A stretch of 64,000 nucleotides of DNA. Source: Brevirhabdus sp. (lineage in GTDB: Bacteria; Pseudomonadota; Alphaproteobacteria; Rhodobacterales; Rhodobacteraceae). Numbering within the stretch: position 1 is the first letter of the stretch; the number at the start of each line of letters is the position of its first letter. A model generated the notes under the pieces. The model worked only from the letters and a program-made list of their open reading frames with translations. It was not told where the DNA came from and did no database searches. The position numbers were made by a program, and so were the translations under genes. Location of the stretch: the NCBI GenBank assembly GCA_024637315.1, contig JAGXFH010000050.1, positions 62,001 through 126,000 on the forward strand. The letters are read 5' to 3'. Positions 43,423 to 59,669 of the stretch are shown here, one piece after another.

Positions 43423-44385
43423 ATGATGAAGCATTGGAAACAAATCGCACTGGCCGGAGCCGTCTCGCTGTCAACGACAGCCGCGGGCGCTCAGGAACGG
43501 TTCATCACCATCGGCACCGGCGGTCAGACCGGCGTTTACTTCGTGGTCGGGCAATCGATCTGCCGTCTCATCAATCGCGGCACGGCCGACCACAACCTGA
43601 AATGCACCGCTCCATCGACCGGCGGCTCGATCGCCAACATCAACGCGATTGCGGCCGGCGACATGGATATGGGTGTCGCGCAGTCGGATTGGCAGTACCA
43701 CGCCTATAACGGCACGTCCGAGTTTGAAGGCAACAAGTTCGACAACCTGCGCGCGGTGTTCTCGGTTCACGGCGAACCCTTCAACGTCATCGCCCGCAAC
43801 GATTCCGGTATCGAGTCTTTCCAGGACCTGGTGGGCAAGCGCGTCAATATCGGCAACCCCGGTTCCGGCCAGCGCGCCACGATGGAAGTGGTGATGAACG
43901 AGATGGGCTGGACCCTGGATGATTTCGCCCTCGCCTCCGAGCTCAAGCCCGCCGAACAGGCTGCAGCCCTTGGCGACAACAAGGTCGACGCCATCATCTA
44001 CACGGTCGGCCACCCGAACGGCTCGATCCAGGAAGCGGTGTCGACCGTCGATGCCCATCTGGTGCCGGTTGAAGGCCCGGAGATCGACAAGCTGGTCGAC
44101 GAAAACCCGTTCTACGCCAAGGCCACGATTCCGGGCGGCATGTACCAGGGTACGGACAGCGACGTGAACACGTTCGGCGTCAAAGCCACGTTCGTCACCT
44201 CGGCCGACGTGCCCGATGACGTTGTTTACGAGGTCGTCAAGGCGGTCTTCGACAATTTCGACCGCTTCAAGAAACTCCACCCGGCCTTCGAGAACCTGAC
44301 CGAAGAACAGATGATCCTGGACGGTCTTTCCGCGCCGCTGCATCCGGGGGCCGAGAAGTACTATGCAGAACGCGGCTGGATGTAA
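43423..44385 (+). CDS. TAXI-family TRAP transporter solute-binding protein
   Basis: 320 residues. Signal peptide to about residue 23 (MMKHWKQIALAGAVSLSTTA, cut after AGA). FITIGTGGQTGVYFVVGQSICRLIN, APSTGGSIANINAIAAGDMDMGVAQSDW and GKRVNIGNPGSGQRAT are hallmark TAXI segments. Periplasmic receptor for the fused TRAP permease downstream. TAXI substrates are poorly known; glutamate/glutamine-like compounds and other organic acids are recorded for the family. Confidence 0.94.
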   Translation: MMKHWKQIALAGAVSLSTTAAGAQERFITIGTGGQTGVYFVVGQSICRLINRGTADHNLKCTAPSTGGSIANINAIAAGDMDMGVAQSDWQYHAYNGTSEFEGNKFDNLRAVFSVHGEPFNVIARNDSGIESFQDLVGKRVNIGNPGSGQRATMEVVMNEMGWTLDDFALASELKPAEQAAALGDNKVDAIIYTVGHPNGSIQEAVSTVDAHLVPVEGPEIDKLVDENPFYAKATIPGGMYQGTDSDVNTFGVKATFVTSADVPDDVVYEVVKAVFDNFDRFKKLHPAFENLTEEQMILDGLSAPLHPGAEKYYAERGWM

Positions 44386-44500: not shown

Positions 44501-47248
44501 ATGGCGAACAAGGACCAACAACAGGCCGCTGCTGTCGAAAGTGCAGCTGCCGGTCGCGGCGGACTGAGCCAGGCCGAACTCGACGAACTGGTCGCGTCTT
44601 CAGATACCGGCGGACGCGCCGCTGCGGGGCCGGTCGGCTTATTCCTGATGCTGGTCGCGCTGGCCTGGTCCCTGTTCCAGCTTTACATCGCGTCGCCCAT
44701 CGGGCTTTTCAATGATACCTGGGCGCGTTCGATCCACCTTGCCTTCGCAATATTCCTGGCCTTTGCCGCCTTTCCCGCCGCCCGAACCAAGTTTCAGATC
44801 GGCCTCGGCATTGCTGTGCCCTTGATCCTCGGCGCGCTTTTCATGTTCTCGGCCAAGGGCGGCACCAGCGTCTGGTGGATACCTGTCATTTCGATCGCCG
44901 TGATGGCCGCAGTTGCGCTGGGATCGCCGAAAGACCGTATTCCAGTCTGGGAATGGGCCTTGGCCATCGTCGGCGCCGCGACAGCACTTTACCTCTACGT
45001 CTTCTACAGGGAGATTTCGGGCCGCGTCGGCGCGCCGATCACGCAGGATTTCGTGGTCTCCGTCATCGGTCTGATCGTCCTGCTGGAGGCGACCCGCCGC
45101 GCGCTTGGCCCTGCCCTGATGATCGTGGCCACGGTGTTCCTGGTCTACACGATCCTTGGGCCACACATGCCCAGCATCATCGCCCACAAGGGCAACAACC
45201 TGTCCGAAATCGTGAATCATCAGTGGATCACGACCGAAGGCGTGTTCGGCATCGCGTTGGGCGTGTCCACCTCCTTCGTCTTCCTCTTCGTGCTTTTCGG
45301 CTCACTGCTGGACCGGGCCGGAGCGGGCAACTATTTCATCCAGGTCGCGTTCAGCCTGATGGGCCACATGAAGGGCGGACCGGCCAAGGCCGCCGTTGTA
45401 TCCTCGGCGATGACAGGTCTGATCTCTGGCTCTTCGATCGCCAACGTCGTCACCACCGGCACCTTCACCATCCCGCTGATGAAGAAGGTCGGCTTCAGCT
45501 CTGAAAAGGCCGGCGCGGTCGAGGTCGCCTCTTCGGTCAACGGCCAGATCATGCCGCCGGTTATGGGTGCTGCAGCGTTCCTGATGGTGGAATATGTCGG
45601 CATCCCCTATTTCGACGTGGTCAAGCACGCCTTCCTGCCTGCCGTGATCAGCTATATCGCGCTGGTCTACATCGTGCATCTCGAAGCGCTGAAGGCCGGG
45701 ATGGAGGGTCTGGAGCGCGCTTACGTTCCGAAACCCATCGTCCAGCGCCTGATCGGCATCGCCTTCACAATTGCCGCGATCTGCGCGATCTCGTTCGCGG
45801 TCTATTACGGCATGGGCTGGATCCGCCCGGCCTTCCCGAACACCGCAGGCTACATCATCTTCGCCTTCATCGGCCTTGTCTATATCGGCCTGCTCTACGT
45901 CGCGTCGAAAGAACCGCCGCTCAAGCTCGACGACCCGAACGAACCGGTCACCAACCTGCCGCTGCCGGGCCCAACGATCCGATCCGGCCTGCACTTCATC
46001 CTGCCCGTCGTCGTTCTGGTCTGGGCGCTGATGATCGACCGCCTGTCGCCGGGCCTTTCAGCCTTCTGGGCCGCGTCCTACATGATCTTCATCCTGCTGA
46101 CCCAGCGCCCGCTGATGGCCATGTTCCGCGGCGAAAGCCGGCTGGCCGGCGACATCAAGCACGGCTTCCTGGACCTGATCGACGGTCTTGTGACCGGCGC
46201 GCGCAACATGATCGGCATTGGCATCGCCACCGCAACCGCCGGCATCATCGTCGGCTCGGTCAGCCAGACCGGCGTCGGCTCTGCGCTCGCCGACGTGGTC
46301 GAGGTGCTGTCGGGCGGCAATATCCTGGCGATCCTGTTCCTGACCGCGATCCTGTCGCTGATCCTCGGCATGGGCCTGCCCACCACGGCGAACTACATCG
46401 TGGTCTCGGCATTGCTTGCGCCGGTGATCGTGACGCTCGGCCAGCAGAACGGCCTGATCGTGCCGCTGATCGCCGTTCACCTCTTCGTGTTCTACTTCGG
46501 CATCATGGCTGACGTGACGCCCCCTGTGGGCCTTGCCAGTTTCGCCGCCGCCGCGGTGTCCGGCGGTGATCCGATCAAGACCGGCGTGATTGCATTCTTC
46601 TACAGCCTGCGCACCGCGGCCCTGCCGTTCCTGTTCATCTTCAACACCGAACTGCTGCTGATCAATGTCGGCTGGGGCCAGGGTATCTTCGTCTTCATTG
46701 TCGCGACGATAGCCATGCTGCTTTTTGCGGCAGCCACGCAGGGCTGGTTCCTTGCCAAGAACCGGTTCTACGAAACAATCGCGCTTCTGCTGATCGCGTT
46801 CACCCTGTTTCGCCCTGGCTTCTGGATGGACATGGTCTCGGCCCCCTATTCCGAGGAAGCCCCGGCAGAGATTGCCGAAGCCGCCGCTGCGACCCCGCCG
46901 GGCCAGGAACTGCGCCTGCGGGTCAGCGGTCTGAACGACCTTGGCGATCCAATCCAGTTCGTCGCGATCCTGCCCATCGGCGAAGGTGCCACGGGCGAAG
47001 AGAAGCTGGAAAATGCCGGCCTGGTGTTCCGCAATGAGGGCGATCAGATGTTCATCGACGATGTGTCCTTTGGCAGCCCCGCAGCCAATGCCGGACTCGA
47101 CTGGGATCAAGAGGTGCTGCGCGTCCTCAAGCCGCTGGACCAGCCCAGCAAGTACTGGATGTTCATTCCTGCACTTCTGGTTCTGGCGCTGATCGTCTTC
47201 CTGCAACGCGGCCGCGCGGCTGCGCCACGGAAGACAGCGGCCGCCTGA
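44501..47248 (+). CDS. TRAP transporter fused permease (DctQM) with DUF3394 C-terminus
   Basis: 915 residues. N-terminal cytoplasmic stretch (1-45), a four-helix DctQ-like part (about 45-200), then the DctM part with about twelve segments (MTGLISGSSIANVVTTGTFTIPLMKKVGF; GMGLPTTANYIVVSALLAPVI). Residues about 780-900 form the soluble DUF3394 domain (LRLRVSGLNDLGDPIQFVA), then a final membrane anchor. This fused form pairs with TAXI receptors; the Na+-driven importer acts in the inner membrane. 11 bases before the UspA gene. Confidence 0.94.
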   Translation: MANKDQQQAAAVESAAAGRGGLSQAELDELVASSDTGGRAAAGPVGLFLMLVALAWSLFQLYIASPIGLFNDTWARSIHLAFAIFLAFAAFPAARTKFQIGLGIAVPLILGALFMFSAKGGTSVWWIPVISIAVMAAVALGSPKDRIPVWEWALAIVGAATALYLYVFYREISGRVGAPITQDFVVSVIGLIVLLEATRRALGPALMIVATVFLVYTILGPHMPSIIAHKGNNLSEIVNHQWITTEGVFGIALGVSTSFVFLFVLFGSLLDRAGAGNYFIQVAFSLMGHMKGGPAKAAVVSSAMTGLISGSSIANVVTTGTFTIPLMKKVGFSSEKAGAVEVASSVNGQIMPPVMGAAAFLMVEYVGIPYFDVVKHAFLPAVISYIALVYIVHLEALKAGMEGLERAYVPKPIVQRLIGIAFTIAAICAISFAVYYGMGWIRPAFPNTAGYIIFAFIGLVYIGLLYVASKEPPLKLDDPNEPVTNLPLPGPTIRSGLHFILPVVVLVWALMIDRLSPGLSAFWAASYMIFILLTQRPLMAMFRGESRLAGDIKHGFLDLIDGLVTGARNMIGIGIATATAGIIVGSVSQTGVGSALADVVEVLSGGNILAILFLTAILSLILGMGLPTTANYIVVSALLAPVIVTLGQQNGLIVPLIAVHLFVFYFGIMADVTPPVGLASFAAAAVSGGDPIKTGVIAFFYSLRTAALPFLFIFNTELLLINVGWGQGIFVFIVATIAMLLFAAATQGWFLAKNRFYETIALLLIAFTLFRPGFWMDMVSAPYSEEAPAEIAEAAAATPPGQELRLRVSGLNDLGDPIQFVAILPIGEGATGEEKLENAGLVFRNEGDQMFIDDVSFGSPAANAGLDWDQEVLRVLKPLDQPSKYWMFIPALLVLALIVFLQRGRAAAPRKTAAA

Positions 47249-47761: not shown

Positions 47762-48745
47762 ATGACCCCTTTCGCAATCGCCGGCATCCAGATGTACGTG
47801 AATGCGCTGCAATCGAACGTCGATGGCATGCTGCACCGGCTGGACGTCCTTATGGCCCGCTTCCCCTGGACGCAGATGGTGCTGTTCTCGGAACTGGCGC
47901 CGTTCGGCCCGCTGCCGCGCTTCGCGCAGCCTTTCTACAACGAACCCGTGGAACGTTTCTGCGACGCCGCCAAAAAACACAATATCTGGCTGATTCCGGG
48001 CTCGATGTTCGAGAAGGCCGAGAATGACGCGATCTACAACACCTCTGTCGTGATCAACCCGCAAGGTGAGATCGTGACGAGCTACCGCAAGATGTTCCCA
48101 TTCCGTCCCTACGAGGCGGAAGTCGAGGCCGGAACCGAGTTCTGCATCTTCGACGTGCCAGAGGTTGGCCGCTTCGGGCTGTCGATCTGCTATGACATCT
48201 GGTTTCCGGAAACCACCCGGCAACTGACCAGCCAGGGCGTCGAGGTTCTGTTGCACCCGGTCCTGACCGGCACAACCGACCGCGACGCGGAACTTGCCAT
48301 CGCGCGGGCCACAGCGGCGCAGTTCCAATGCTATGTGGTCGACGTCAATGGTCTTGGCGCGGGCGGCAACGGCCGGTCCTGCGTGATCGACCCGGCGGCG
48401 ACGGTTCTGCACCAGTCCGCCGGCCAGGAGGACATGTTCCCGATCGAGCTTGACCTCAGCCAGGTCCGCCGTCAGCGCGAAACCGGCATGAAGGGCCTCG
48501 GCCAGGTGCTGAAAAGCTTCCGCGACCGGTCCGTCGACTTCTCGATCTATGACCGTGCCAGCGGCACCGATGTCTACCTGCATGGTCTGGGCCCGCTCGA
48601 GATTCCGAAGCAGGGATCGCGCGCCGGACTGCATGTCGACGTCAAGACCGATACGATTGGTTTCAGGTCTTCACAGACTCAGGCGCTGTCGAATGTAACA
48701 GACCTGCATTTAACGCCCGTTCCGGGCAAATCTACTGGCAGTTGA
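47762..48745 (+). CDS. Carbon-nitrogen hydrolase (nitrilase superfamily)
   Basis: 327 residues. Catalytic triad visible: Glu44 (VLFSELAPFG), Lys110 (SYRKMFPFRP), Cys143 (GLSICYDIWFPE). The fold continues to about residue 260, after which a 60-residue tail with no known domain follows. It hydrolyses an amide or carbamoyl compound; true nitrilases usually have different flanking residues. Same strand and spacing as the TRAP genes (70 bases) and the decarboxylase-like gene (75 bases), so probably one functional group. Confidence 0.87.
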   Translation: MTPFAIAGIQMYVNALQSNVDGMLHRLDVLMARFPWTQMVLFSELAPFGPLPRFAQPFYNEPVERFCDAAKKHNIWLIPGSMFEKAENDAIYNTSVVINPQGEIVTSYRKMFPFRPYEAEVEAGTEFCIFDVPEVGRFGLSICYDIWFPETTRQLTSQGVEVLLHPVLTGTTDRDAELAIARATAAQFQCYVVDVNGLGAGGNGRSCVIDPAATVLHQSAGQEDMFPIELDLSQVRRQRETGMKGLGQVLKSFRDRSVDFSIYDRASGTDVYLHGLGPLEIPKQGSRAGLHVDVKTDTIGFRSSQTQALSNVTDLHLTPVPGKSTGS

Positions 48746-48820
48746 TCCGCAATTCGGGCAAGGCCGTCCGCGCCTCGCTCTGTATCTCGGATTTTCCGCC
48801 GGTAACACGGGGAATACGCG

Positions 48821-51562
48821 ATGCAATCAATGAGCGATTATTATTCTGCCATTCAGCTGCGCTCTGACCGTTGGAGCAAGCTGCGCGAAACCACTGACGC
48901 CTTGGCGCGCGACCCCGACAGTCGTCACGCCAAGGCCACTCGCGCCAAGATCAGCGAGCTTTTCGACTCGCTTTCCCTGATCGAAGCCTATTGGGCCTTT
49001 CCCGGCGTGCAGGCTTTCGATCATATCCGCCGCCAGTTCGACCACGGCAATCTTGACGATGTCGCCTTCGCCGTCCACCGCGTGACCCGCGGCCTCACGA
49101 CCGGGGCCTATCGCCGCCGCCACATCCCGCTTGACCGTGACGCCGCCGAAGCCGACGATCACGAAGACGAGGCGATGCTGTCGCCCGAAGCCCGTGCCCT
49201 GACCAAGCCCTATTTCGAAGTGATGATCGTCGACAACGTCAACGAACATCAGGAACGCTGGCTGAAATCCAACATGACGTCGATGCGCCGCGCCGAGGAC
49301 CCTTTCACCTATGAGGCGGTGGTCGTGCCCAGCCTGCAGGACGCGCTGATCGGCGTCCTTTTCAATCATAATATACAGGCCATCGTCGTGCGCCCCGGCC
49401 TGAAGATGGAATCGAAGGTCGATCTGCCGATCCTGAAACGCTACCTGAACCGGGCCGGCGGGATTGAAAACATCGAGGAGCTGGCGCCCGAGGATTACGG
49501 CCCCGAACTCTGCCGCCTGATCGCCAAGGTCCGGCCCGAACTTGACGCCTATCTCGTGACCGAGCGCTCGGTCGAGGATATCGCCGGTCTCGATCTCGGC
49601 ATCTGCCGCCGGGTCTTCTACAATCAGGAAGACTTCGTCGAACTGCACCTCAATATCCTGCGCGGTGTGCAGGCCCGGTTCAAGACGCCGTTCTTCACCG
49701 CGCTCAAGGAGTATTCCAAGCAGCCCACCGGCGTTTTCCACGCCATGCCGATCAGCCGCGGCAAGTCGATCAGCCGCAGCCACTGGATCCAGGACATGGG
49801 CGCGTTTTACGGTCCCAACATCTTCATGGCCGAAACCTCTGCCACGTCAGGCGGGCTCGACAGCCTGCTGGAACCGCACGGACCGATCAAGGAAGCCCAG
49901 GAACTCGCCAGCCGCGCCTTCGGATCGAAACAGACCTTCTTCGCCACCAACGGCACCTCGACCTGTAACAAGATCGTGGTGCAGGCACTGGTGCGCCCGG
50001 ATGACATCGTCCTCGTGGACCGTGACTGCCACAAGTCGCACCATTACGGCATGGTGCTGGCCGGGGCCAACGTGGTCTATCTCGACAGCTATCCGCTCAA
50101 TGAATATTCGATGTATGGCGCGGTGCCATTGACTGAGATCAAGCACTCCTTGCTCAAGCTCAAAGCCGCCGGCAAGCTCGACAGGGTAAGGATGCTGTTG
50201 CTGACAAACTGCACCTTCGACGGCATCGTCTACAATGTCGAACGAGTGATGGAGGAATGCCTCGCCATCAAACCCGACCTCGTTTTCCTCTGGGACGAGG
50301 CGTGGTTCGCCTTCGCCCGCTTCGGCCCCACCTACCGCCAGCGGACCGGGATGAACGCCGCCAACAACATGCGGGTAAGCCTGCGTACACCGGAACATGC
50401 CAAGGCCTATGAAAAGCAGCAGGAAAAACTGAAGGACGCGGACGAGAAAACCCTGCTGAAGACCCGGCTGATCCCGCCGCCGAATGCCCGCGTCCGGGTC
50501 TATGCCACGCAATCAACCCACAAGACGCTGACCTCTCTGCGTCAGGGCTCGATGATCCATGTCAACGATCAGGACTTCAAGGGCGAGGTCGAGCAGAGCT
50601 TCCACGAAGCCTACATGACCCATACCTCGACCAGCCCGAACTACCAGATCATCGCCTCGCTCGATGTCGGTCGCCGGCAGGTGGAACTGGAAGGCTTCGA
50701 ATTCGTCCAGCGCCAGGTCGAAGCCGCGATGTCGATGCGCCGCGCCATTTCGACCCATCCGCTGTTGCAGAAGTACTTCAAGGTTCTCACCGCCGGAGAC
50801 ATGATCCCCGACACGCACCGCGAAAGCGGGGTCGAAAGCTACTACGACCCCGATCAAGGCTGGACCGATATCTGGGATTGTTGGGAAAAGGACGAATTCG
50901 TGCTGGACGCAACCCGTGTCACGCTTTCCGTTGGCGGCACCGGCTGGGACGGGGATACGTTCAAGACTGATATCCTGATGGACAAGTACGGCATCCAGAT
51001 CAACAAGACCTCGCGCAACACGGTCCTCTTCATGACCAATATCGGCACCACGCGGTCCTCGGTCGCCTATCTCATCGAGGTGCTGGTCGAGATCGCCAAA
51101 AGCCTCGATGAACTGCTCGACGACGCCTCGAAGATGGAACGCCTGGCCTTCGACCGCCGGGTCAAGAACCTGATGGAGGATCTGCCGCCGCTGCCGGATT
51201 TCAGCCGCTTTCACGATGCGTTCCGCACCGATCAGGTGACCCCCGAGGGCGATATCCGCAGCGCGTTTTTCCTCAGCTATGACGCGAACAATTGCGACTA
51301 CCTCGAACTGGACGGGTCGCTGAAAAAGGCAATGGATGCCGGACAAGAGGTCGTCTCGGCGTCGTTCATCATCCCTTATCCGCCCGGTTTCCCGATCCTG
51401 GTGCCGGGGCAGGTTGTCAGCAAAGAGATCCTGGCCTTCATGCGGGCACTCGATGTCAATGAGATCCATGGTTACCGCGCTGATCTGGGCCTGCGCGTCT
51501 TTACGCAGGATGCCTTGGAGCGGCATGCCAAAAAGATGAAAACCGCACTCGCAGCTAAATAA
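48821..51562 (+). CDS. Orn/Lys/Arg decarboxylase-like PLP enzyme (913 aa)
   Basis: 913 residues, long for the family (E. coli LdcI 715). The first 150 residues are helical and unlike known decarboxylases. A wing-like segment follows (YEAVVVPSLQDALIGVLFNH and LPILKRYLNRAGG, about 160-215). The fold type I core has TSATSGGLDSLLEPHG, ATNGTSTCNKIVVQALV, FLWDEAWFAFARF and the PLP Lys568 in ATQSTHKTLTSLRQ. C-terminal LVPGQVVSKEILAFMRALD is as in family members. It should act on a basic or other amino acid; the long N-terminus and the ATP-grasp partner make the true reaction uncertain. RBS ACGGGGAA precedes ATG 48821. Confidence 0.88.
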   Translation: MQSMSDYYSAIQLRSDRWSKLRETTDALARDPDSRHAKATRAKISELFDSLSLIEAYWAFPGVQAFDHIRRQFDHGNLDDVAFAVHRVTRGLTTGAYRRRHIPLDRDAAEADDHEDEAMLSPEARALTKPYFEVMIVDNVNEHQERWLKSNMTSMRRAEDPFTYEAVVVPSLQDALIGVLFNHNIQAIVVRPGLKMESKVDLPILKRYLNRAGGIENIEELAPEDYGPELCRLIAKVRPELDAYLVTERSVEDIAGLDLGICRRVFYNQEDFVELHLNILRGVQARFKTPFFTALKEYSKQPTGVFHAMPISRGKSISRSHWIQDMGAFYGPNIFMAETSATSGGLDSLLEPHGPIKEAQELASRAFGSKQTFFATNGTSTCNKIVVQALVRPDDIVLVDRDCHKSHHYGMVLAGANVVYLDSYPLNEYSMYGAVPLTEIKHSLLKLKAAGKLDRVRMLLLTNCTFDGIVYNVERVMEECLAIKPDLVFLWDEAWFAFARFGPTYRQRTGMNAANNMRVSLRTPEHAKAYEKQQEKLKDADEKTLLKTRLIPPPNARVRVYATQSTHKTLTSLRQGSMIHVNDQDFKGEVEQSFHEAYMTHTSTSPNYQIIASLDVGRRQVELEGFEFVQRQVEAAMSMRRAISTHPLLQKYFKVLTAGDMIPDTHRESGVESYYDPDQGWTDIWDCWEKDEFVLDATRVTLSVGGTGWDGDTFKTDILMDKYGIQINKTSRNTVLFMTNIGTTRSSVAYLIEVLVEIAKSLDELLDDASKMERLAFDRRVKNLMEDLPPLPDFSRFHDAFRTDQVTPEGDIRSAFFLSYDANNCDYLELDGSLKKAMDAGQEVVSASFIIPYPPGFPILVPGQVVSKEILAFMRALDVNEIHGYRADLGLRVFTQDALERHAKKMKTALAAK

Positions 51563-51577
51563 AACAGGGAGGCCCAA

Positions 51578-53038
51578 ATGGCCAAGAAAATGCTGAACAA
51601 CATCTCGGAAATCCGCCGCTATTTCCATCGCAACGAAGACCCGATCTACTTCATCTCGGCCACCAACTTCAATCTGCTCGGGATCGATGAGTGGTGCAAG
51701 AACTTCAAGTATATCTGCTACATAGACTGCTATGACGGCCGCCATCCGAACGTCTTCTGCCCGTCAGAGCAGCCCCATGCAGAGTTTCAGTCGATCGAGG
51801 ATATCAACAACTACCTGCTGCAGCATAAGGAGGTCATCGACCTTATCAAACGCCGCGGCGGCAAGCCGAAATTTGTATTCCTGATGTTCGACGAGGAAAC
51901 CGAGCGGCTGTCGAAAGAGCTTGGCGCTGATGTCTGGTTCCCGAAGGCGAAACTTCGCACCAACATGGACAACAAGATCGAGACCGTCCGCATCGGCAAC
52001 AAGGCCGGAGTGCCGTCGGTGCCGAACGTGCTGGCAGAAGTCAAATCATATGAGGACCTGAAGAAGACCTGCGAAAGGGCCGGTATCGGCCACGACCTTG
52101 TGCTGCAATCGGCCTTCGGCGATAGCGGCCACACCACCTTCTTCATCAAGTCAGAGGCCGATTTCCGCCGCCATGAACACGAGATCATCGGCGAAGGCGA
52201 AATCAAGATCATGAAGCGCATCGACTGCCGCGGCTCGGCCATCGAGGCCTGCGCGACCTCGGAAGGCACGATCGTCGGCCCCTTGATGACCGAACTCGTC
52301 GGCTTCAAGGAACTGACCCCCTATCGCGGCGGCTGGTGCGGCAACGAGATCCTCTCGACCGCGTTCCCGCCCAAGGTCCGCGACAAGGCCCGCGACCTGA
52401 CCTTCAAATTCGGCGAGCAACTGCGGAAAGAAGGCTATCGCGGATATTTCGAGCTGGACTTCCTGATCGACAAGAAGACCGGCGACCTCTGGCTGGGCGA
52501 GTTGAATCCGCGGATCACCGGCGCATCCTCGATGACCAACCACGCCGCCTTCGCCCATGCAGACGCGCCGCTCTTCCTGTTCCACTTGCTGGAATTCTCG
52601 AAGGCCAAGTTCAAGCTGGACGTGGACGAGTTGAACGACCGCTGGGCCGATCCCGACATGATCGACAGCTGGTCGCAGATGGTCATCAAGCATACCGAGG
52701 ACACTGTGGACATCGTGACCCACGCGCCGCAATCGGGCATCTACAAGATGCTGGAGGATGGTCGCGTGGTCTTTGATCGCTTCGACTATCACCGCCGCGC
52801 GGTGGAATCAGAGAACGAGGCGTTCTTCCTGCGGATCACCAAGCCCGGCGATTACCGCTATGAAGGCGCCGATCTGGGCATTCTTGTTACCCGTGGCCGC
52901 TCGATGACGTCGGGGTTCCAGTTGAACGAGCGCGCGAAACGGTGGATACACGGCATCAAGCAAAGCTTCGCCGCCCAACCCTTGCCGGTGGCAGAGGCTG
53001 GACCGGATCTTGCGGATCCGGCCTTCAAGATCATGTAA
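51578..53038 (+). CDS. ATP-grasp enzyme of unknown specificity
   Basis: 486 residues. ATP-grasp core about residues 100-340: HDLVLQSAFGDSGHTTFFI (nucleotide and Gly-rich loop), EIKIMKRIDCRGSAIEA, and YFELDFLIDKKTGDLWLGEL followed by NPRITGASS, with the metal-binding Glu and Asn. The first 90 residues look like a pre-ATP-grasp Rossmann part, and the last 130 are unique. Automatic tools may call it biotin carboxylase, but no biotin-carboxylase partners exist here. It may join an amine or amino acid to a carboxylate. Starts 15 bases after the decarboxylase with AGGGAGG upstream, so tightly linked. Confidence 0.82.
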   Translation: MAKKMLNNISEIRRYFHRNEDPIYFISATNFNLLGIDEWCKNFKYICYIDCYDGRHPNVFCPSEQPHAEFQSIEDINNYLLQHKEVIDLIKRRGGKPKFVFLMFDEETERLSKELGADVWFPKAKLRTNMDNKIETVRIGNKAGVPSVPNVLAEVKSYEDLKKTCERAGIGHDLVLQSAFGDSGHTTFFIKSEADFRRHEHEIIGEGEIKIMKRIDCRGSAIEACATSEGTIVGPLMTELVGFKELTPYRGGWCGNEILSTAFPPKVRDKARDLTFKFGEQLRKEGYRGYFELDFLIDKKTGDLWLGELNPRITGASSMTNHAAFAHADAPLFLFHLLEFSKAKFKLDVDELNDRWADPDMIDSWSQMVIKHTEDTVDIVTHAPQSGIYKMLEDGRVVFDRFDYHRRAVESENEAFFLRITKPGDYRYEGADLGILVTRGRSMTSGFQLNERAKRWIHGIKQSFAAQPLPVAEAGPDLADPAFKIM

Positions 53039-53068
53039 CCCACCGGGCAAGTGCCCAAGGCGACCGAT

Positions 53069-54058
53069 ATGGAAATGCTCTGGCGCGCTATCGACCTTCC
53101 GGATCCCGGCCCGAAATGGGCCGGGCTCTTTCACGAATTCTGGCCCGCCTATCACACCTGGTGGCAGCGCGAAGGCGTCCATGCCCGCCCCACCTACCGC
53201 GACAGTCACCGCGCGCTGCGTCAGCATATGCCGGAACTGATGCCGATCTACGAAACGCTCTGCGAACTGGCAGGCGGCGGCGATAACGCGGCGCGGTTTC
53301 TCAGCTTCTACGGACCGCCCGCCTACCTTTCCGGCTGCAGCCAGGCGATCTGGCCGGGGGCCGAACCCGTGCTGGTCCGCAACTACGACTACAACCCGCA
53401 TGCCTTCGACCGGCTGGTGATGCGCACCAACTGGCAAGGCCGCAAGGTGATCGGCACCAGCGACGGGCTGTGGGGACTGGTGGACGGCATGAACGATGCC
53501 GGGCTTGCCGTATCGCTGACCTTTGGCGGCCGCCGTGTCGTCGGCGAAGGCTTTGGCGTGCCGCTGATCCTGCGCTACGTCCTGCAAACCTGCGAAACTG
53601 CGGAAGAGGCCGGCAAGGCGCTGTCTCGCGTACCGACACATATGAGCTACAACGTCACCGTCGTCGACGCCAAGCGCAACTACCTGACCGCGCTGATGGC
53701 CCCCGACCGCAAGACCCGCATCACCCATGCCGCGGTCGCCACCAATCATCAGGACAAGGTGGAATGGGACAGCCATGCCCGCTTCACCGCCACCGTAGAG
53801 CGCGAACGCTTTCTGCTGCACCGCCTTACCCTTCATGTCGATCCGGAAGAGAAATTCATCGGGGCGTTCCTGCGCCCGCCGCTTTATTCCTCGGCCTTCG
53901 CGCAGGGTTTCGGCACGCTTTACACCGCTGTCTACCGCCCGCGCCTTGGTCAGATGGAGCTGCGCTGGCCCCGCGCGCTCTGGCCGCTGAACCTTCACGA
54001 TTTCGTCGAGGATCAGCGCATGATCTACACCCCCGAACCAGCAGGACAGGTGCTATGA
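53069..54058 (+). CDS. C45-family self-processing acyltransferase/hydrolase
   Basis: 329 residues from ATG 53069 (a GTG at 53051 in frame is possible). NTN hydrolase of the acyl-CoA:6-aminopenicillanate acyltransferase type. Cleavage is expected in PAYLSG|CSQAIWPG, making Cys90 the N-terminal nucleophile of the mature beta chain; LVRNYDYNPHAFD, GLVDGMNDAGLAVSLTFGGR and HMSYNVTVVDA are other family marks. Such enzymes form or cut amide bonds. It ends in an ATGA overlap with the aminotransferase. Substrate unknown. Confidence 0.85.
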   Translation: MEMLWRAIDLPDPGPKWAGLFHEFWPAYHTWWQREGVHARPTYRDSHRALRQHMPELMPIYETLCELAGGGDNAARFLSFYGPPAYLSGCSQAIWPGAEPVLVRNYDYNPHAFDRLVMRTNWQGRKVIGTSDGLWGLVDGMNDAGLAVSLTFGGRRVVGEGFGVPLILRYVLQTCETAEEAGKALSRVPTHMSYNVTVVDAKRNYLTALMAPDRKTRITHAAVATNHQDKVEWDSHARFTATVERERFLLHRLTLHVDPEEKFIGAFLRPPLYSSAFAQGFGTLYTAVYRPRLGQMELRWPRALWPLNLHDFVEDQRMIYTPEPAGQVL

Positions 54059-55374
54059 ACCATGTTTTTCCCCGCCACAGCCGCAAGCAGAACCCGGTCG
54101 CGACAGGGGGCGAGGGTTGTTATCTGATCGACTCGAACGGCAAACGCTACCTTGACGGGTCAGGCGGCGCCGCGGTGTCCTGCCTTGGCCATGGCGACCC
54201 CGAGATTATCGCCGCGATCAAGGCGCAACTCGACAAGATCGCCTTCGCCCATACCGGTTTCTTCACTTCCGAACCCGCCGAAGCGCTTGCCGATCTTCTG
54301 ATCGAACACGCGCCGCCGGGAATCGAGCGGGTCTATTTCGTCTCTGGCGGATCCGAGGCGACCGAGGCCGCGATCAAGCTCGCGCGGCAGTATTTCGTCG
54401 AGAAGGGCGAACCCGAGCGCGGCCGCCTGATCGCGCGAAAGCAAAGCTATCACGGTAACACCATCGGCGCCTTGTCGGCCGGCGGCAACGAATGGCGCCG
54501 CGCGCAGTTCGCACCGCTGCTGCTCGATGTCAGCCATATCGACCCCTGCTACGACTACCGTCTGCGCCGCGAAGGCGAGAGCCCTGAAGATTATGGCCTG
54601 CGCGCCGCCAATGCTCTGGAAGAGGAACTGCTGCGCGTCGGCCCCGAAACCGTCATGGCGTTCATGGCCGAACCGGTTGTCGGCGCCACCGCCGGTGCCC
54701 TGCCGCCCGCGCCGGGCTATTTCCGCCGCATCCGCGAGATCTGCGACAAATACGGGGTGCTCTTGATCCTCGATGAGGTGATGTGCGGCATGGGTCGCAC
54801 CGGCACACTGTTCGCCTGCGAGCAGGACGGCATCGCCCCGGATATCGCCTGCATCGCCAAGGGTCTCGGGGCGGGATATCAGCCAATCGGCGCGATGTTG
54901 TGCACCGCAGAGATTTACGACACGATCCGCGACGGCACCGGGTTCTTCCAGCATGGCCACACCTATATCGGCCACCCCACCGCCACCGCAGCGGGTCTTG
55001 CCGTGGTCAGCGCGATCCTGAACCGCAACCTGCTGGACCGAGTCAAGACCCAGGGCGACAAACTCGCCGATGCTCTGCAGGACCGTTTCGGCCAGCACCC
55101 GAATGTCGGCGACATCCGCGGCCGCGGCCTGTTCCGTGGCATCGAGATCGTCGAGGACCGTGACACCAAGGCCGCCTTCGACCCCACGAGCGGCATCGCC
55201 GCCAAACTGAAGTCCGCGGCCTTCGACGAGGGGCTGATCTGCTACCCGATGTCGGGCACGATCGACGGCCAGACAGGCGACCACATCCTTTTGGCGCCGC
55301 CGTTCATCATCGAGGATGCGCAGATCACCGAACTGACCGACAAGATCGACGCGGCGATCAAAAGGGTGCTCTAG
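54055..55374 (+). CDS. Class III aminotransferase (omega-amino donor type)
   Basis: 439 residues. Fold type I: YLDGSGGAAVSCLGHGDPEI, FVSGGSEATEAAIKLARQYF, LILDEVMCGMGRTGTLFACEQ (PLP-binding Asp) and the Schiff-base Lys in DIACIAKGLGAGYQP. It fits enzymes moving the distal amino group of diamines, GABA or beta-alanine, or unusual alpha-amino acids. Start overlaps the C45 gene stop. As the partner of a decarboxylase-like enzyme it could take a resulting amine to an aldehyde; inference only. Confidence 0.9.
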   Translation: MNHVFPRHSRKQNPVATGGEGCYLIDSNGKRYLDGSGGAAVSCLGHGDPEIIAAIKAQLDKIAFAHTGFFTSEPAEALADLLIEHAPPGIERVYFVSGGSEATEAAIKLARQYFVEKGEPERGRLIARKQSYHGNTIGALSAGGNEWRRAQFAPLLLDVSHIDPCYDYRLRREGESPEDYGLRAANALEEELLRVGPETVMAFMAEPVVGATAGALPPAPGYFRRIREICDKYGVLLILDEVMCGMGRTGTLFACEQDGIAPDIACIAKGLGAGYQPIGAMLCTAEIYDTIRDGTGFFQHGHTYIGHPTATAAGLAVVSAILNRNLLDRVKTQGDKLADALQDRFGQHPNVGDIRGRGLFRGIEIVEDRDTKAAFDPTSGIAAKLKSAAFDEGLICYPMSGTIDGQTGDHILLAPPFIIEDAQITELTDKIDAAIKRVL

Positions 55375-55481: not shown

Positions 55482-55919
55482 ATGCCCAAACCGATCCATA
55501 TCCTGAACGGCCCCAACCTGAACCTGCTGGGTCAGCGCCAGCCAGAGGTCTATGGCTCGGAGACGCTGGTAGATGTCGAGAAATGGTGCGCCACGATGGC
55601 AAAGGAACTCGGCTTGGCCTGCTCCTGCCTGCAATCAAACCATGAAGGTCAGCTTGTCGACTGGATTCAGGAGGCCAGACAATCCGCCTCTGGCATCATC
55701 ATCAATCCCGGCGCCTACAGCCACACCTCCGTCGCGATTCTCGACGCGCTGAACGCCTTCGACGGCCCGGTGCTCGAGGTGCATATCTCGAACATCCACA
55801 AGCGCGAGGCGTTCCGGCATCACTCCTATGTCTCGCATCGCGCCGATGGCGTCATCGCCGGCTTCGGCACCGAGGGCTACGCACTGGCCCTGCGCCGGAT
55901 GGCCAGCCTGCTGGGCTGA
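55482..55919 (+). CDS. aroQ: Type II 3-dehydroquinate dehydratase
   Basis: 145 residues. [23 protein letters not shown] at the N-terminus with the Tyr/Arg lid, [33 protein letters not shown] and [20 protein letters not shown] with the catalytic His: a complete AroQ. Dehydrates 3-dehydroquinate. There are no other shikimate genes here; it lies at the end of the amine/amide run, 107 bases after the aminotransferase, which is unusual. It may be a second, catabolic copy acting on quinate-derived dehydroquinate. Confidence 0.93.
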
Positions 55920-56052: not shown

Positions 56053-56931
56053 TCAGGTGAATTTCCGGAAGCTTCTTGTCTGGTTGAACATCTCTTCCAG
56101 CTCTTCCATCCGAGGCCGTGTCTCATCCCAGTTAAGCTCTTGCACGGCCGAGATCATCGTTTCCAGCAGCAGCACTGTCGCCACCGAGGAATCCCAGGCC
56201 GACGGCACGACGATCCGGCTGTTGAAGCAATGTCGGGCGAACCGCGCCACCGGCGAGCGCCACTGGTCGGTGAACAGCACGATCGCGGCGCCTCTGGATT
56301 GCGCCAGTTCCGCCAGCTTCAGCGTGCTGTTCTCATAGCGCCGCATGTCGAAGACGATCAGAACGTCCCCGTCCTTCATATCAAGAAGGTAGTGCGGCCA
56401 GCCGCTGGCGCCGGACTGGAAGTTCACCACTCCACCCCGGATCATCTGCATATGAACGAACAGGTAATCGGCCAGGGACCGCGTCACCCGTCCGCCGACG
56501 ATGTTGATGACCCGGTCCCGATCCGCCAGCAGCGCACAGGTCGCGTCGAACGTCTCGGTCTCGATATGCGCCAGGGTCTGCCGGATATTGCCAATCACCG
56601 CCTCGGTGAAGCGGTTCAGGATATGCCCTTCGGGGGCGCGGCCGGCCCAGATGTCATGCTTGGCAATCGGCCCGGTGATCTTCGCCTCCAGCTCGCGCCG
56701 CAACTCCTGCTGAAAATCCGGGAATCCCTTGTAGCCCAGCTTCTGCACCATCCGCGCCACTGTCGGCGTCGATACTTCCGCGGTCAACGCGACGGCGGTG
56801 ATGGACCTCAGACCCGAGACCGGGTAATTCTGCAGGATCGTATCGGCCAATTGCCGTTCCGCGCGGGTCAGACTGTCCAGCCGCGCATGCAGGCGGTCCG
56901 CAATCGTTTCGAATTCCTCGGCCAAGCCCAA
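56053..56931 (-). CDS. MurR/RpiR-family transcriptional regulator
   Basis: 292 residues. N-terminal HTH_6 domain (LTRAERQLADTILQNYP, AEVSTPTVARMVQKLGYKGFPDF) and a C-terminal SIS domain (RVINIVGGRVTRSLADYL to VLIVFDMRRYE), which senses a phosphosugar or other small ligand. Divergent from the amidohydrolase-TRAP-GS operon, which it probably controls. A TTACGTAA palindrome (56980-56987) and a TTGACA lie in the shared region. Confidence 0.92.
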   Translation of the reverse strand: MGLAEEFETIADRLHARLDSLTRAERQLADTILQNYPVSGLRSITAVALTAEVSTPTVARMVQKLGYKGFPDFQQELRRELEAKITGPIAKHDIWAGRAPEGHILNRFTEAVIGNIRQTLAHIETETFDATCALLADRDRVINIVGGRVTRSLADYLFVHMQMIRGGVVNFQSGASGWPHYLLDMKDGDVLIVFDMRRYENSTLKLAELAQSRGAAIVLFTDQWRSPVARFARHCFNSRIVVPSAWDSSVATVLLLETMISAVQELNWDETRPRMEELEEMFNQTRSFRKFT

Positions 56932-57049
56932 CCCTTTCCGCGGCGCCCAACCGCAAACCGCTGGCGACAGGTCAAATCCTTACGTAATTTTCTTGACAGC
57001 TCAAGCGCGGATGAAGAAATCTGTTCAACAGGTGGGGGAGAGATTGCGG

Positions 57050-57838
57050 TTGCCGACCAGCACGGACATTGCCAGAGACGCCGATGCAGCGCCCTGCATC
57101 CTGACGAATGCCGCCGGCAGTTCGCCGGTTCTACTGGTCTGCGAACATGCCTCGAACCGCATCCCCGCCGAATTCGGCGACCTGGGGCTCAGCGAGGACG
57201 CCCTTACCAGCCATATCGCCTGGGATCCGGGCGCATTGGCCGTCGCGGAGAATCTCAGCGCGATCCTTGATGCCAGACTGATTCACAGCACGATCTCGCG
57301 GCTGGTATATGACTGTAACCGCCCGCCCGAGGCCGAAGACAGCATCCCGGCGCGCAGCGAACGCTTCGACATCCCCGGCAACCAGCACCTTGATCCCCGC
57401 GCCCTCGACCGGCGGGCAGAGGCCGCCTATCGCCCGTTCCAACACCTGATGACCCGCACGCTGAACGAGATGCAGACTGCGGTGCTTGTCACGGTCCACA
57501 GCTTCACGCCGGTCTATTTCGGCAAACCCCGCGCCACCGAGATCGGCATCCTGCACGATACCGACAGCCGACTGGCCGATGAAATGCTCACCCTCGCTGG
57601 CGATCATCTGCCCGGACTCGTGCAGCGCAACCAACCCTACGGGCCGGCGGACGGCGTGACCCATACCTTGCGGGAACACGCGTTGATCCAGGGGCACCTG
57701 AACGTGATGCTGGAACTCCGCAATGACCTGATCGCCACCACCGAACAGCAGCAAGCCATGGCGCTGGCGCTGGCAAGAACGATCGCCGCGGCCCTCGCCA
57801 ATCTCGGCGTTGCCCACGATCTGAGGGTGAAGGCGTGA
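57050..57838 (+). CDS. N-formylglutamate amidohydrolase family enzyme
   Basis: 262 residues from a TTG at 57050, chosen because GGGGGAG lies 9 bases upstream; other in-frame starts (57044, 57011, 56993) exist, but the TTGACA at 56993-56998 there looks more like a -35 box. SSPVLLVCEHASNRIPAEFG and SHIAWDPGALAVA carry zinc ligands; LVYDCNRPPEA and VTVHSFTPV follow. The family cleaves N-formyl- or related N-acyl amides of glutamate. In this operon it may remove a gamma-glutamyl or similar group; substrate inferred from context. Confidence 0.83.
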   Translation: MPTSTDIARDADAAPCILTNAAGSSPVLLVCEHASNRIPAEFGDLGLSEDALTSHIAWDPGALAVAENLSAILDARLIHSTISRLVYDCNRPPEAEDSIPARSERFDIPGNQHLDPRALDRRAEAAYRPFQHLMTRTLNEMQTAVLVTVHSFTPVYFGKPRATEIGILHDTDSRLADEMLTLAGDHLPGLVQRNQPYGPADGVTHTLREHALIQGHLNVMLELRNDLIATTEQQQAMALALARTIAAALANLGVAHDLRVKA

Positions 57839-58347
57839 TGGGCTTCCTGCGCAGCTATGTCCGCGTCGTCGATGCGATCAACTACCGGGTCGGGCGGGTG
57901 GTGATGTACGGCATCTTCGTGATGATGGCGATCCTGTTGTGGTCATCGATCTCGAAGACCCTGCCAAACATGCTGCCCTCGCTCTGGACCCTTGAAATGG
58001 CGCAATTCGCCATGGTCGCCTATTACATCCTCGGCGGTCCCTACTCGATCCAGCTTGGCTCGAACGTTCGCATGGACCTGTTCTATGGCGCCTGGAGCGA
58101 CAAGCGAAAGGCATGGTTCGACGGATTTACCGTGCTGCTTCTCTGTTTCTATCTCGGCGTCCTGCTTTACGGCGCCATCGACAGCACCAGCTACGCGATC
58201 AGGTACGGCGAACGGAACCCGACCGCCTGGCGGCCGGTTCTGTGGCCGATCAAATCGATCATCTGCGTCGGGCTGTTCCTGATGCTGCTTCAGGCCGTTT
58301 CCGAACTCTTCAAGGACATCGCCAAGATCAAGGGTAAGCCGATCTGA
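57838..58347 (+). CDS. dctQ: TRAP transporter small permease (DctQ)
   Basis: 169 residues with four membrane segments, for example MYGIFVMMAILLWSSI, FAMVAYYILGGPYS and FTVLLLCFYLGVLLYGAI. LGGPYSIQLGSNVRMDLFYG is the conserved DctQ segment (usually R-x-D at the end). Starts at an ATG inside the amidohydrolase stop (TGATG), and ends in the same way on dctM. Second TRAP system of the window, with separate Q, M and P genes. Confidence 0.9.
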   Translation: MGFLRSYVRVVDAINYRVGRVVMYGIFVMMAILLWSSISKTLPNMLPSLWTLEMAQFAMVAYYILGGPYSIQLGSNVRMDLFYGAWSDKRKAWFDGFTVLLLCFYLGVLLYGAIDSTSYAIRYGERNPTAWRPVLWPIKSIICVGLFLMLLQAVSELFKDIAKIKGKPI

Positions 58348-59669
58348 TGTCGCACGAAATGATCGCACTCCTGATGTTCTCGTCGATGATGCTTATGCTG
58401 ATGACCGGCCAGCGCGTCTTTGGCGCCATCGGCGGCGTGGCGGTGATCGCCTCGCTTGCGCTCTGGGGCACCGGCGGCTCGCTGATCCCGTTCTCGGCGG
58501 CGATGAAGCTGATGAAATGGTATCCGCTGCTGACCTTGCCGATGTTCATCTTCATGGGCTATGTGCTGTCGGAATCGAAGATCGCCGACGACCTCTACAA
58601 GATGTTCCATGTCTGGATGGGGCCGGTGCATGGCGGCCTTGCCATCGGCACGATCGGACTGATGGTGCTGATCTCGGCGATGAACGGGCTTTCGGTCGCC
58701 GGCATGGCCATCGGCGCCACGATCGCGCTGCCGGAACTCTTGAAACGCAACTACGACAAGAAGATGGTGACCGGCGTGATCCAGGCCGGATCATCGCTTG
58801 GCATCCTCGTGCCGCCCTCGGTCGTGCTGGTCCTCTACGCGATGATTGCCCGCCAGCCGGTCGGCCAGCTTTGGCTGGCTGGGGTCTTTCCGGGCCTGAT
58901 GATGGCCGGGCTCTTCATCCTTTACATCTACATTCGCTGCCGCATCCAGCCGCACCTGGGCCCGGTCCTGCCACCCGAGGAACGCAACGTCCCGATGGCC
59001 GAGAAACTGCGCCTGCTGCGCGCGGGACTGCTGCCGATCATCATTTTCGCCGCGATGATGGTGCCGTTCATCAAGGGCTGGACCAGCCTGGTGGAAAGCT
59101 CTGCCATCGGCGCGATCACCGCCTTTCTGGCGGCCGTCATCAAGGGCCGGATGACCAGAGAGGTGTTCGAGGTCTCGGTCCGCCAGACCCTCGCCATCAC
59201 CTGCATGTTCATGTGGATCATTCTGGCCGCCCTCGGCTTTGGCGCGGTCTTCGACGGGCTTGGCGCGGTCCGGGCGATCGACAACCTCTTTACCGAACAG
59301 ATGCACCTCGATCCCTGGACGATCCTGATCCTGATGCAGATCTCGTTCCTCTTGATGGGCACGTTTCTTGACGACACCGCCATGCTGGTCATCGTCGCCC
59401 CGCTCTACGTGCCGCTGGTGGACGCGCTTGGCTTCGACCTGATCTGGTACGGCGTGCTTTACACGATCACCACCCAGATCGCCTACATGACCCCGCCATT
59501 CGGCTACAACCTGTTCCTGATGCGCGCCATGGCGCCGCCGGAAATCAGCCTGCGCGACCTCTACGCCTCGATCATCCCGTTCGTGCTGGTGATGATTCTG
59601 GCCCTCAGCCTGATCATGATCTTCCCGCAGATCGCGATGTGGCTGCCCAACTACGTCTACGGAAAGTAA
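58347..59669 (+). CDS. dctM: TRAP transporter large permease (DctM)
   Basis: 440 residues with about twelve membrane segments. MTGQRVFGAIGG, PLLTLPMFIFMGYVLSESKI and VIQAGSSLGILVPPSVVLVLYA are typical for DctM, as is MGTFLDDTAMLVIVAPLYVPL. It is the ion-driven translocator of the TRAP system. Coupled to dctQ by TGATG; 70 bases before dctP. Confidence 0.94.
   Translation: MSHEMIALLMFSSMMLMLMTGQRVFGAIGGVAVIASLALWGTGGSLIPFSAAMKLMKWYPLLTLPMFIFMGYVLSESKIADDLYKMFHVWMGPVHGGLAIGTIGLMVLISAMNGLSVAGMAIGATIALPELLKRNYDKKMVTGVIQAGSSLGILVPPSVVLVLYAMIARQPVGQLWLAGVFPGLMMAGLFILYIYIRCRIQPHLGPVLPPEERNVPMAEKLRLLRAGLLPIIIFAAMMVPFIKGWTSLVESSAIGAITAFLAAVIKGRMTREVFEVSVRQTLAITCMFMWIILAALGFGAVFDGLGAVRAIDNLFTEQMHLDPWTILILMQISFLLMGTFLDDTAMLVIVAPLYVPLVDALGFDLIWYGVLYTITTQIAYMTPPFGYNLFLMRAMAPPEISLRDLYASIIPFVLVMILALSLIMIFPQIAMWLPNYVYGK

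What the first reader, a model, noticed from the sequence alone, without database searches (positions are those of the whole stretch)
47762..55374. Unassigned amine/amide operon: CN hydrolase, decarboxylase-like enzyme, ATP-grasp, C45 NTN hydrolase, aminotransferase
Five tightly packed same-strand genes follow a TAXI-TRAP importer. The sequence shows a decarboxylase-fold PLP enzyme 15 bases before an ATP-grasp gene, then a self-processing C45 enzyme 30 bases on, then an overlapping aminotransferase. I cannot place this combination in a described pathway. Amide-forming (ATP-grasp) and amide-cutting (C45, CN hydrolase) enzymes together suggest either breakdown of an N-acylated amino acid or amine, or making and releasing a small amide. 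Function is inferred from families only.
Basis: partly seen in the sequence, partly recalled or inferred. Interest (0 to 1): 0.8.

Follow-up and report, generated by a model that had tools for sequence, protein, structure and literature searches.

The report
Conserved glutamate-linked amide gene module
Four neighbouring enzyme genes of unknown purpose travel together through many marine, soil and plant-associated bacteria, often beside a probable glutamate importer or genes for handling GABA, and they appear to form an undescribed route that builds and cuts amides around glutamate-family amino acids.

Summary
The genes are as described. Four of the five (CN hydrolase 'CNH', Orn/Lys/Arg-type PLP enzyme 'OKR', ATP-grasp 'ATPG', C45 hydrolase) form a conserved core; the aminotransferase is an accessory. 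In 198 same-family genomes, OKR and close ATPG occur in the same 32. Of 80 named loci found through ATPG, 74 carry all four on one strand; 19 carry the aminotransferase. My searches found no published pathway. OKR is a full-length relative of M. tuberculosis Rv2531c, activity unknown. The Glu proposed to hold lysine's side chain is Asn in 49 of 49 OKRs, with an Arg near the PLP lysine, so a free basic amino acid is an unlikely substrate. The adjacent TAXI importer is 60% identical to a proven glutamate-binding protein and keeps its strongest contacts. GABA aminotransferase genes recur nearby (24 of 145 loci); in four loci an arginine/ornithine-to-GABA gene set replaces OKR. Best reading: a glutamate-family amino acid becomes GABA through an amide that ATPG makes and C45 cuts. 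All reactions are inferred; glutamate as the importer's cargo is the best-supported step.

The parts
43423..44385 (+). TAXI-type TRAP solute-binding protein, probable glutamate binder
   Evidence: TIGR02122 364 bits against 84.35; 60% identity to VcGluP 8s4j and main ligand contacts kept
44501..47248 (+). fused TRAP membrane protein with C-terminal DUF3394 domain
   Evidence: PF06808 and PF11874
47260..47691 (+). universal stress protein
   Evidence: PF00582
47762..48745 (+). CN hydrolase (CNH), core gene
   Evidence: PF00795; E44, K110, C143 invariant in 44 of 44
48821..51562 (+). Orn/Lys/Arg-decarboxylase-fold PLP enzyme (OKR), Rv2531c family, core gene
   Evidence: PF01276; full-length match to 9n0o/9n0n; K568, N728, R574 invariant in 49 of 49
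51578..53038 (+). stand-alone ATP-grasp enzyme (ATPG), core gene
   Evidence: NF005096; model pLDDT 89.3; fold comparison
53069..54058 (+). C45-family Ntn amidohydrolase/acyltransferase, core gene (alternative start GTG 53051)
   Evidence: PF03417, NF040521; model pLDDT 93.1; Z 29.2 to isopenicillin N acyltransferase precursor; Cys96 (numbered from 53051) invariant in 47 of 47
54055..55374 (+). class III aminotransferase, accessory gene
   Evidence: PF00202, NF005685 760 bits against 485; close copy on the same strand in 19 of 80 named loci

Best explanation
A glutamate-fed amide pathway that ends in GABA. Step 1 (supported by homology and ligand contacts): the TAXI-TRAP system imports L-glutamate or a close analogue. 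Step 2 (inferred): ATPG joins a carboxylate, most simply the side-chain carboxylate of glutamate, to an amine, leaving the alpha-amino acid head free. Step 3 (inferred, with residue support): OKR removes the alpha-carboxylate of this non-basic amino acid and gives a GABA amide, or GABA directly if glutamate itself is the substrate. Step 4 (inferred): C45 cuts or transfers the GABA amide and CNH cuts a second small amide, releasing GABA. Step 5 (supported by neighbours): a class III aminotransferase, PRK07483-type here and a true GABA aminotransferase at other loci, feeds GABA into central metabolism.
For: Importer: 60% identity to VcGluP, which binds glutamate at 0.065 uM; Y45, S75, Q93, E125, Y200, V44, H123, G156 and G203 kept in the window protein; Y, S and Q at the three costliest mutated positions in 22 of 22 TAXI proteins of these loci; same DUF3394 domain on the membrane protein. 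OKR: the position aligned with LdcI Glu526 is Asn, and a Ser six residues after the PLP lysine is Arg, in 49 of 49 and in Rv2531c. OKRs without the other core genes sit beside aspartate:alanine-type antiporters in 7 of 145 loci. Neighbours in 145 loci: GABA aminotransferase 24, glutamate-synthase-like 10, SSADH 8, glutamate dehydrogenase 3; GABA aminotransferase directly upstream in L212-L214, with members over the NCBIfam cut-off. Catalytic residues of CNH and C45 intact.
Against: No reaction is shown. TAXI/TRAP genes are missing near many loci (TRAP membrane protein in 57 of 145), and peptide-type ABC genes stand at others (DppA-D matches in 8 to 15 of 145). The window TAXI protein differs from VcGluP at S40, Y46, D157, M201 and one disulfide. 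Glu526 as substrate contact rests on docking and an earlier proposal. In L203 and L216-L218 an arginine/ornithine set replaces OKR, which glutamate as substrate does not explain. SpeB stands at 4 of 145 loci. Some distant ATPG loci lack OKR, C45 or CNH (L068-L071, L087, L219-L222). The genome has two other PF00282 decarboxylases and a GABA aminotransferase elsewhere.
Confidence: 0.35

Rival explanations
1. Amine-capped ornithine/arginine (or lysine) breakdown. ATPG caps the side-chain amine; the capped amino acid loses its head group either through OKR plus aminotransferase plus aldehyde dehydrogenase, or through racemase, D-amino acid dehydrogenase, AruI and aldehyde dehydrogenase; C45 then uncaps N-acyl-GABA. 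The cap would stop the amino-aldehyde from closing into a ring, as gamma-glutamyl does in the PuuA-PuuD putrescine route (recalled).
For: L203 and L216-L218 hold ATPG and C45 inside an AruI, aldehyde dehydrogenase, D-amino acid dehydrogenase and racemase set; the L203 racemase is Orr-like (393 bits, under the cut-off of 480) and carries an Arginase-family domain. SpeB-type genes in 4 of 145 loci and again in L217 and L218. PuuR-like regulator in 19 of 145. An amide-capped side chain would also explain Asn728 in OKR.
Against: The importer looks like a glutamate binder. The PuuR-like protein scanned is under the cut-off (153.8 against 211). The antiporter-linked OKRs keep the same Asn and Arg residues without ATPG or C45.
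Confidence: 0.22
2. A biosynthetic operon: the four enzymes make a GABA- or amine-containing amide (an osmolyte or signal), with C45 working as an acyltransferase and CNH as a tailoring amidase, rather like the ATP-grasp/PLP decarboxylase pair of butirosin assembly (recalled).
For: The closest solved fold to C45 is isopenicillin N acyltransferase (Z 29.2). Amide ligase plus decarboxylase in one operon. The module lies inside an ectoine-type catabolic cluster in L108 and L110.
Against: Importer genes and catabolic aminotransferase or SSADH genes are the recurrent neighbours; I saw no recurrent exporter among the neighbour families counted, though I did not search for exporters as such.
Confidence: 0.2
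3. Ordinary polyamine metabolism: OKR decarboxylates arginine, ornithine or lysine and CNH is an AguB-like N-carbamoylputrescine amidase.
For: OKR family membership; the best NCBIfam hit of CNH is AguB; SpeB in 4 of 145 loci.
Against: AguB score 69.2 against a cut-off of 410.25; Glu526 replaced by Asn in 49 of 49; the role of ATPG and C45 is left unexplained.
Confidence: 0.1
4. ATPG is a biotin-free N-carboxylase of the PurK kind that uses bicarbonate on an amine, urea or guanidine group, and C45 and CNH break the product down.
For: PurK and biotin carboxylase top the structural comparison (Z 22-24); E308, N310, R312 invariant in 51 of 51; a urea-transporter-family gene lies beside the module in L118 and L119.
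Against: PylC (amide ligase) and PurT lie within about 2 Z units, so the fold does not discriminate; the positions of the biotin carboxylase ATP-site Lys and catalytic Glu (roles recalled) hold Gln and Ala/Cys/Ile.
Confidence: 0.07

Closest known systems
Rv2531c of M. tuberculosis (PDB 9n0n, 9n0o, 9n0p)
   Same: Full-length homologue of OKR (query residues 14-902, E about 5e-248), same Asn and Arg substitutions
   Different: Activity unknown according to a 2026 review (PMC12910592, passages). I did not look at its genome neighbourhood.
Bacterial Lys/Arg decarboxylases LdcI and AdiA
   Same: PLP fold and STHK lysine motif
   Different: OKR is about 200 residues longer; Glu526 to Asn and Ser to Arg near the PLP lysine
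VcGluPQM, glutamate-specific TAXI-TRAP of Vibrio cholerae (PMC11574862; outline and sections 19, 22, 23, 24 read)
   Same: 60% identity, main glutamate contacts, DUF3394 domain
   Different: S40, Y46, D157, M201 and the C191-C216 disulfide not kept
Isopenicillin N acyltransferase and other C45/Ntn amidases (NAAA, penicillin V acylase, bile salt hydrolase)
   Same: Fold over 302 residues for the acyltransferase precursor, Cys nucleophile position shared with mature penicillin V acylase and bile salt hydrolase
   Different: 8-20% identity in the 50 rows listed; substrate unknown
PurK, biotin carboxylase, PylC and PurT ATP-grasp enzymes
   Same: Fold, Z 22-24
   Different: 9-16% identity in the 50 rows listed; biotin carboxylase ATP-site Lys and catalytic Glu positions changed
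PuuA-PuuD gamma-glutamyl putrescine pathway and BtrJ/BtrK of butirosin assembly (both recalled)
   Same: Logic only: ATP-made amide, processing, amide cut, GABA product
   Different: Different enzyme families, as far as recalled; not compared here

Membership tests
Group III Orn/Lys/Arg decarboxylase acting on a basic amino acid | OKR major domain and PLP lysine | tested here: met
   PF01276 E 9.9e-77; S-T-H-K568 invariant in 49 of 49
Group III Orn/Lys/Arg decarboxylase acting on a basic amino acid | Glu at the LdcI 526 position, proposed contact for the substrate's distal amine | tested here: not met
   Asn728 in 49 of 49; role of Glu526 from PMC5607190, passages, based on docking
Rv2531c-type amino acid decarboxylase | full-length sequence match including the long N-terminal part | tested here: met
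   query 14-902 aligned, 828 bits
Biotin carboxylase (name of NCBIfam NF005096) | catalytic Glu (E. coli Glu296) and ATP-site Lys (Lys159); roles recalled | tested here: not met
   aligned positions are Ala/Cys/Ile316 and Gln177 in 51 of 51 (alignment to pyruvate carboxylase; counts)
Biotin carboxylase (name of NCBIfam NF005096) | partner biotin carrier and carboxyltransferase genes | not tested
   no dedicated search was made
Carboxylate-amine (amide-forming) ATP-grasp ligase | ATP-grasp fold with amide ligase activity | tested here: inconclusive
   fold close to PylC (Z 23.1) but equally to PurK and biotin carboxylase; activity not testable here
C45 autoproteolytic acyltransferase/hydrolase | model over cut-off, Ntn fold and invariant Cys nucleophile | tested here: met
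   NF040521 172.8 against 85; Z 29.2; Cys96, Arg110, Asp113 invariant in 47 of 47
C45 autoproteolytic acyltransferase/hydrolase | self-cleavage before the Cys | not testable with these tools
   needs purified protein
Nitrilase-superfamily CN hydrolase | Glu-Lys-Cys triad | tested here: met
   E44, K110, C143 in 44 of 44
N-carbamoylputrescine amidase (AguB) | NCBIfam equivalog cut-off | tested here: not met
   69.2 against 410.25 bits
Glutamate-specific TAXI-TRAP system | ligand contacts of VcGluP | tested here: met
   main contacts kept, four of the listed residues changed
Glutamate-specific TAXI-TRAP system | measured glutamate binding | not testable with these tools
   needs purified protein
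Puu gamma-glutamyl putrescine pathway | PuuA, PuuB and PuuD enzyme families | not tested
   no search with these models was made; a PuuR-like regulator stands at 19 of 145 loci, the one scanned under the cut-off (153.8 against 211)

The most novel reading that the evidence does not exclude
A new kind of GABA-forming pathway in which an Orn/Lys/Arg-fold decarboxylase works on an amide-bearing or acidic amino acid (a gamma-glutamyl amide, glutamate itself or capped ornithine), with the amide made by a stand-alone ATP-grasp ligase and released by a C45 hydrolase. It would point to the chemistry of the whole Rv2531c family and overturn the names 'biotin carboxylase' and basic amino acid decarboxylase.
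Probability: 0.35. Interest if true: 0.75.

Novelty: new variant of a known kind. Interest (0 to 1): 0.58.

Why it matters
It gives a genomic context and a short list of testable substrates to an orphan PLP-enzyme family that has solved structures but no known activity. It shows that two enzymes in many genomes probably carry the wrong names. It also points to an unrecognised way in which roseobacters, rhizobia and others handle glutamate, arginine or GABA, which matter in marine nitrogen cycling and legume symbiosis.

Tried and rejected
Polyamine reading with an AguB-type amidase: score far below the cut-off. Biotin carboxylase reading: catalytic positions changed. Lysine 5-aminovalerate (DavB-DavA, recalled) reading: a CN hydrolase would fit, but the suggestive neighbour, a protein similar to succinate-glutarate CoA-transferase (533 bits against a cut-off of 750), was scanned only in L069, whose copy of the module lacks OKR; weaker CaiB-type matches stand at 11 of 145 loci. 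I made no search for lysine monooxygenase. Ectoine catabolism: the module lies inside such a cluster in L108 and L110; EutB/EutC-like matches also occur in L042 and L061. Glutamate-decarboxylase-gap argument: the genome has two PF00282 decarboxylases elsewhere, so it proves nothing; a complete GABA aminotransferase also lies elsewhere in the genome.

Literature: searches gave no description of this gene set; the library holds only open-licence papers, so absence is weak. One search returned nothing; one search gave one useful paper, PMC5607190 (passages). The 2025 structure paper on Rv2531c was not held; I know of it from passages and a reference of PMC12910592. PMC10203303 was looked at in passages; those passages did not describe this gene set.

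Gene calling: my first calls took antisense ORFs for genes in high-GC loci and were replaced by a codon-usage caller of my own. Fold lists: no family is claimed to be excluded by its absence.

Limits of counts. Hits covering under 40% of a query were dropped. In one search OKR rows under 851 residues were dropped (48 of 50 kept, plus the window protein). In one search short rows were dropped (CNH 43 of 44, C45 46 of 48 and ATPG 50 of 50 kept, plus the window protein each). Alignments A1 and A2 took 33 of 51 and 29 of 49 sequences in hand. Of the 32 genomes with close ATPG, 29 loci besides the window's own were read; G078 and G087 (split contigs) were not. Of the six lacking a core gene, five are cut by a contig end and one (L192) has room for CNH but lacks a match. 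Related genomes are not independent. The OKR tree was a quick one with long branches.
Full report
Observation. The five ORFs are real, same-strand and tightly packed (gaps 75, 15, 12 or 30, and -4). Family scans confirm CN hydrolase, OKR decarboxylase fold, C45/AAT and class III aminotransferase; the ATP-grasp protein passes only the NCBIfam model NF005096, named 'biotin carboxylase'. The TAXI protein, fused TRAP membrane protein and Usp upstream are spaced by 115, 11 and 70 bases (coordinates) and probably belong to the same unit.

What is conserved. I fetched 29 loci from other genera of the family. The order CNH-OKR-ATPG-C45 is kept: OKR 29 of 29, C45 29 of 29, CNH 28 of 29 (the exception, L072, starts at a contig edge inside OKR), TAXI and its membrane protein 18 of 29, a close aminotransferase on the same strand 6 of 29. 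In the best 80 named genome loci found through ATPG, OKR occurs in 80, C45 in 79, CNH in 75, all four in 74, the TRAP membrane protein in 37 and a close aminotransferase in 19. Searches of the same 198 family genomes with ATPG and with OKR pick the same 32 (counted). Median gaps are 69, 17 and 13 bases for CNH-OKR, OKR-ATPG and ATPG-C45, over 39, 45 and 46 same-strand pairs. So the core is four genes, and the aminotransferase is accessory.

Reach. ATPG at E 1e-40 or better is found in 11 of 385 genomes sampled across the class (two of them family members) and 11 of 398 across the phylum (four of them family members); OKR at E 1e-60 in 17 of 398. Outside the family the order can change (CNH-ATPG-C45-OKR in L108-L110; two divergent pairs in L111) while the set stays together. 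The module, or OKR-ATPG-C45 without CNH, also lies on plasmids of Rhizobium leguminosarum (one carries nifA), on pSymA of Sinorhizobium meliloti RU11/001 and on a Cupriavidus plasmid. The linkage is looser for distant ATPGs: L068-L071 have ATPG, C45 and CNH but no OKR, L219 and L220 only ATPG and C45, L221 and L222 only ATPG and CNH, and L087 ATPG next to an aminotransferase.

OKR. The protein aligns over nearly its whole length with Rv2531c of M. tuberculosis (PDB 9n0n, 9n0o, 9n0p). A 2026 review says that its activity has not been clarified (PMC12910592, passages). The PLP lysine motif is intact. Glu526 of LdcI, put forward as a contact for the substrate (PMC5607190, passages; docking plus an earlier proposal), aligns by my count with Asn728, which is invariant in 49 of 49. 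A Ser six residues after the PLP lysine becomes Arg574, also invariant in 49 of 49 and present in Rv2531c; Arg732 is invariant in 49 of 49 but is Ile in Rv2531c. I infer that the substrate is not a free basic amino acid. Seven OKRs without the other core genes nearby sit beside AspT-type aspartate:alanine antiporters (L112-L117, L205; annotated aspT in L205, just under or under the NCBIfam cut-off in L112). They form one clade in a quick tree of 54 rows (SH-aLRT 100). An acidic amino acid exchanged for its decarboxylated product would fit.

ATPG. The model (pLDDT 89.3) resembles PurK, biotin carboxylase, PylC and PurT about equally (Z 22-24), so the fold alone cannot choose between amide ligation and carboxylation. 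The positions of the biotin carboxylase ATP-site lysine and catalytic base (roles recalled) hold Gln177 in 51 of 51, and Ala (47), Cys (2) or Ile (2) at 316. It should not be called a biotin carboxylase.

C45 and CNH. The C45 model (pLDDT 93.1) matches the precursor of isopenicillin N acyltransferase over 302 residues (Z 29.2, rmsd 3.1) and, from Cys96 on, mature penicillin V acylase and bile salt hydrolase. Cys96, Arg110, Asp113, Asn201 and Asn232 are invariant in 47 of 47, and the CNH triad in 44 of 44. Both look like active amidohydrolases or acyltransferases; their substrates are unknown.

Importer. The TAXI protein is 60% identical to VcGluP, whose glutamate Kd is 0.065 uM and glutamine Kd 11 uM (PMC11574862, outline and sections 19, 22, 23, 24 read). 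The residues whose mutation costs most affinity (Q93, Y45, S75) are kept in 22 of 22 TAXI proteins of these loci; in the window protein S40, Y46, D157, M201 and one disulfide are not. The membrane protein carries the same DUF3394 domain. Glutamate or a near analogue is therefore the likely cargo. Against this, most loci lack TAXI/TRAP genes nearby (TRAP membrane protein in 57 of 145), and peptide-type ABC genes stand at some.

Neighbours. Of 145 loci, 24 have a GABA aminotransferase as best match, 19 a PuuR-like regulator, 11 a CaiB-type CoA-transferase, 10 a glutamate-synthase-like gene, 8 SSADH, 4 SpeB and 3 glutamate dehydrogenase, on either strand. GABA aminotransferase again precedes the core in L212-L214. 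The scanned GABA aminotransferases and SSADH are over NCBIfam cut-offs; the scanned PuuR-like protein is not. In L203 and L216-L218, ATPG and C45 sit inside a set without OKR: amino acid permease, AruI, aldehyde dehydrogenase, D-amino acid dehydrogenase and racemase in 4 of 4, SpeB and divergent CNH in 3 of 4. In L203 AruI and SpeB pass their models, the racemase is like ornithine racemase (under its cut-off) and also carries an Arginase-family domain. Arginine or ornithine would reach GABA by that set (pathway recalled). So both arrangements point towards GABA.

Mechanism. I commit to a route in which a glutamate-family amino acid reaches GABA through an amide made by ATPG and cut by C45. Shown: conservation, linkage, intact catalytic residues, the importer's ligand contacts, the substrate-side change in OKR. 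Inferred: every reaction. The glutamate-first and capped-ornithine versions both remain open; the first explains the importer and the antiporter-linked clade better, the second the OKR-less arrangement.

Verdict. The locus is a conserved metabolic module for which my searches found no description. I rate it a new variant of known amide and GABA chemistry rather than a new class of system, unless the OKR substrate proves to be an amide-bearing amino acid.

Noticed in passing
window 56053-60768: A second unit follows: RpiR-type regulator on the minus strand, an N-formylglutamate amidohydrolase family gene, and genes that read as a second TRAP importer (small and large membrane parts, binding protein; the TRAP part read from the sequence, not scanned).
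   Followed up: partly
window 55482-55919: Type II 3-dehydroquinate dehydratase gene 107 bases after the aminotransferase; it looks unrelated to the module.
   Followed up: no
L203:13785-15572: Fusion of an ornithine-racemase-like domain with an Arginase-family domain in an arginine/ornithine catabolic operon of a Shinella plasmid.
   Followed up: partly
L112-L117 and L205: OKR-family decarboxylases without the other core genes, beside aspartate:alanine-type antiporters: a possible new decarboxylase/antiporter pair.
   Followed up: partly
L118:11426-14241 and the matching part of L119: A urea-transporter-family protein carrying a Peptidase_M23 domain, and a 215-residue protein without a Pfam hit, directly upstream of OKR-ATPG-C45 in a distant lineage.
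   Followed up: partly
L201:11977-17554: In a lentil Rhizobium plasmid OKR is annotated as two genes and C45 is cut short next to an IS30 transposase gene, so the module seems to be decaying there.
   Followed up: no
L200:5326-9160: A Nif11-type RiPP precursor gene with radical SAM maturation genes lies near the module on a clover Rhizobium plasmid.
   Followed up: no
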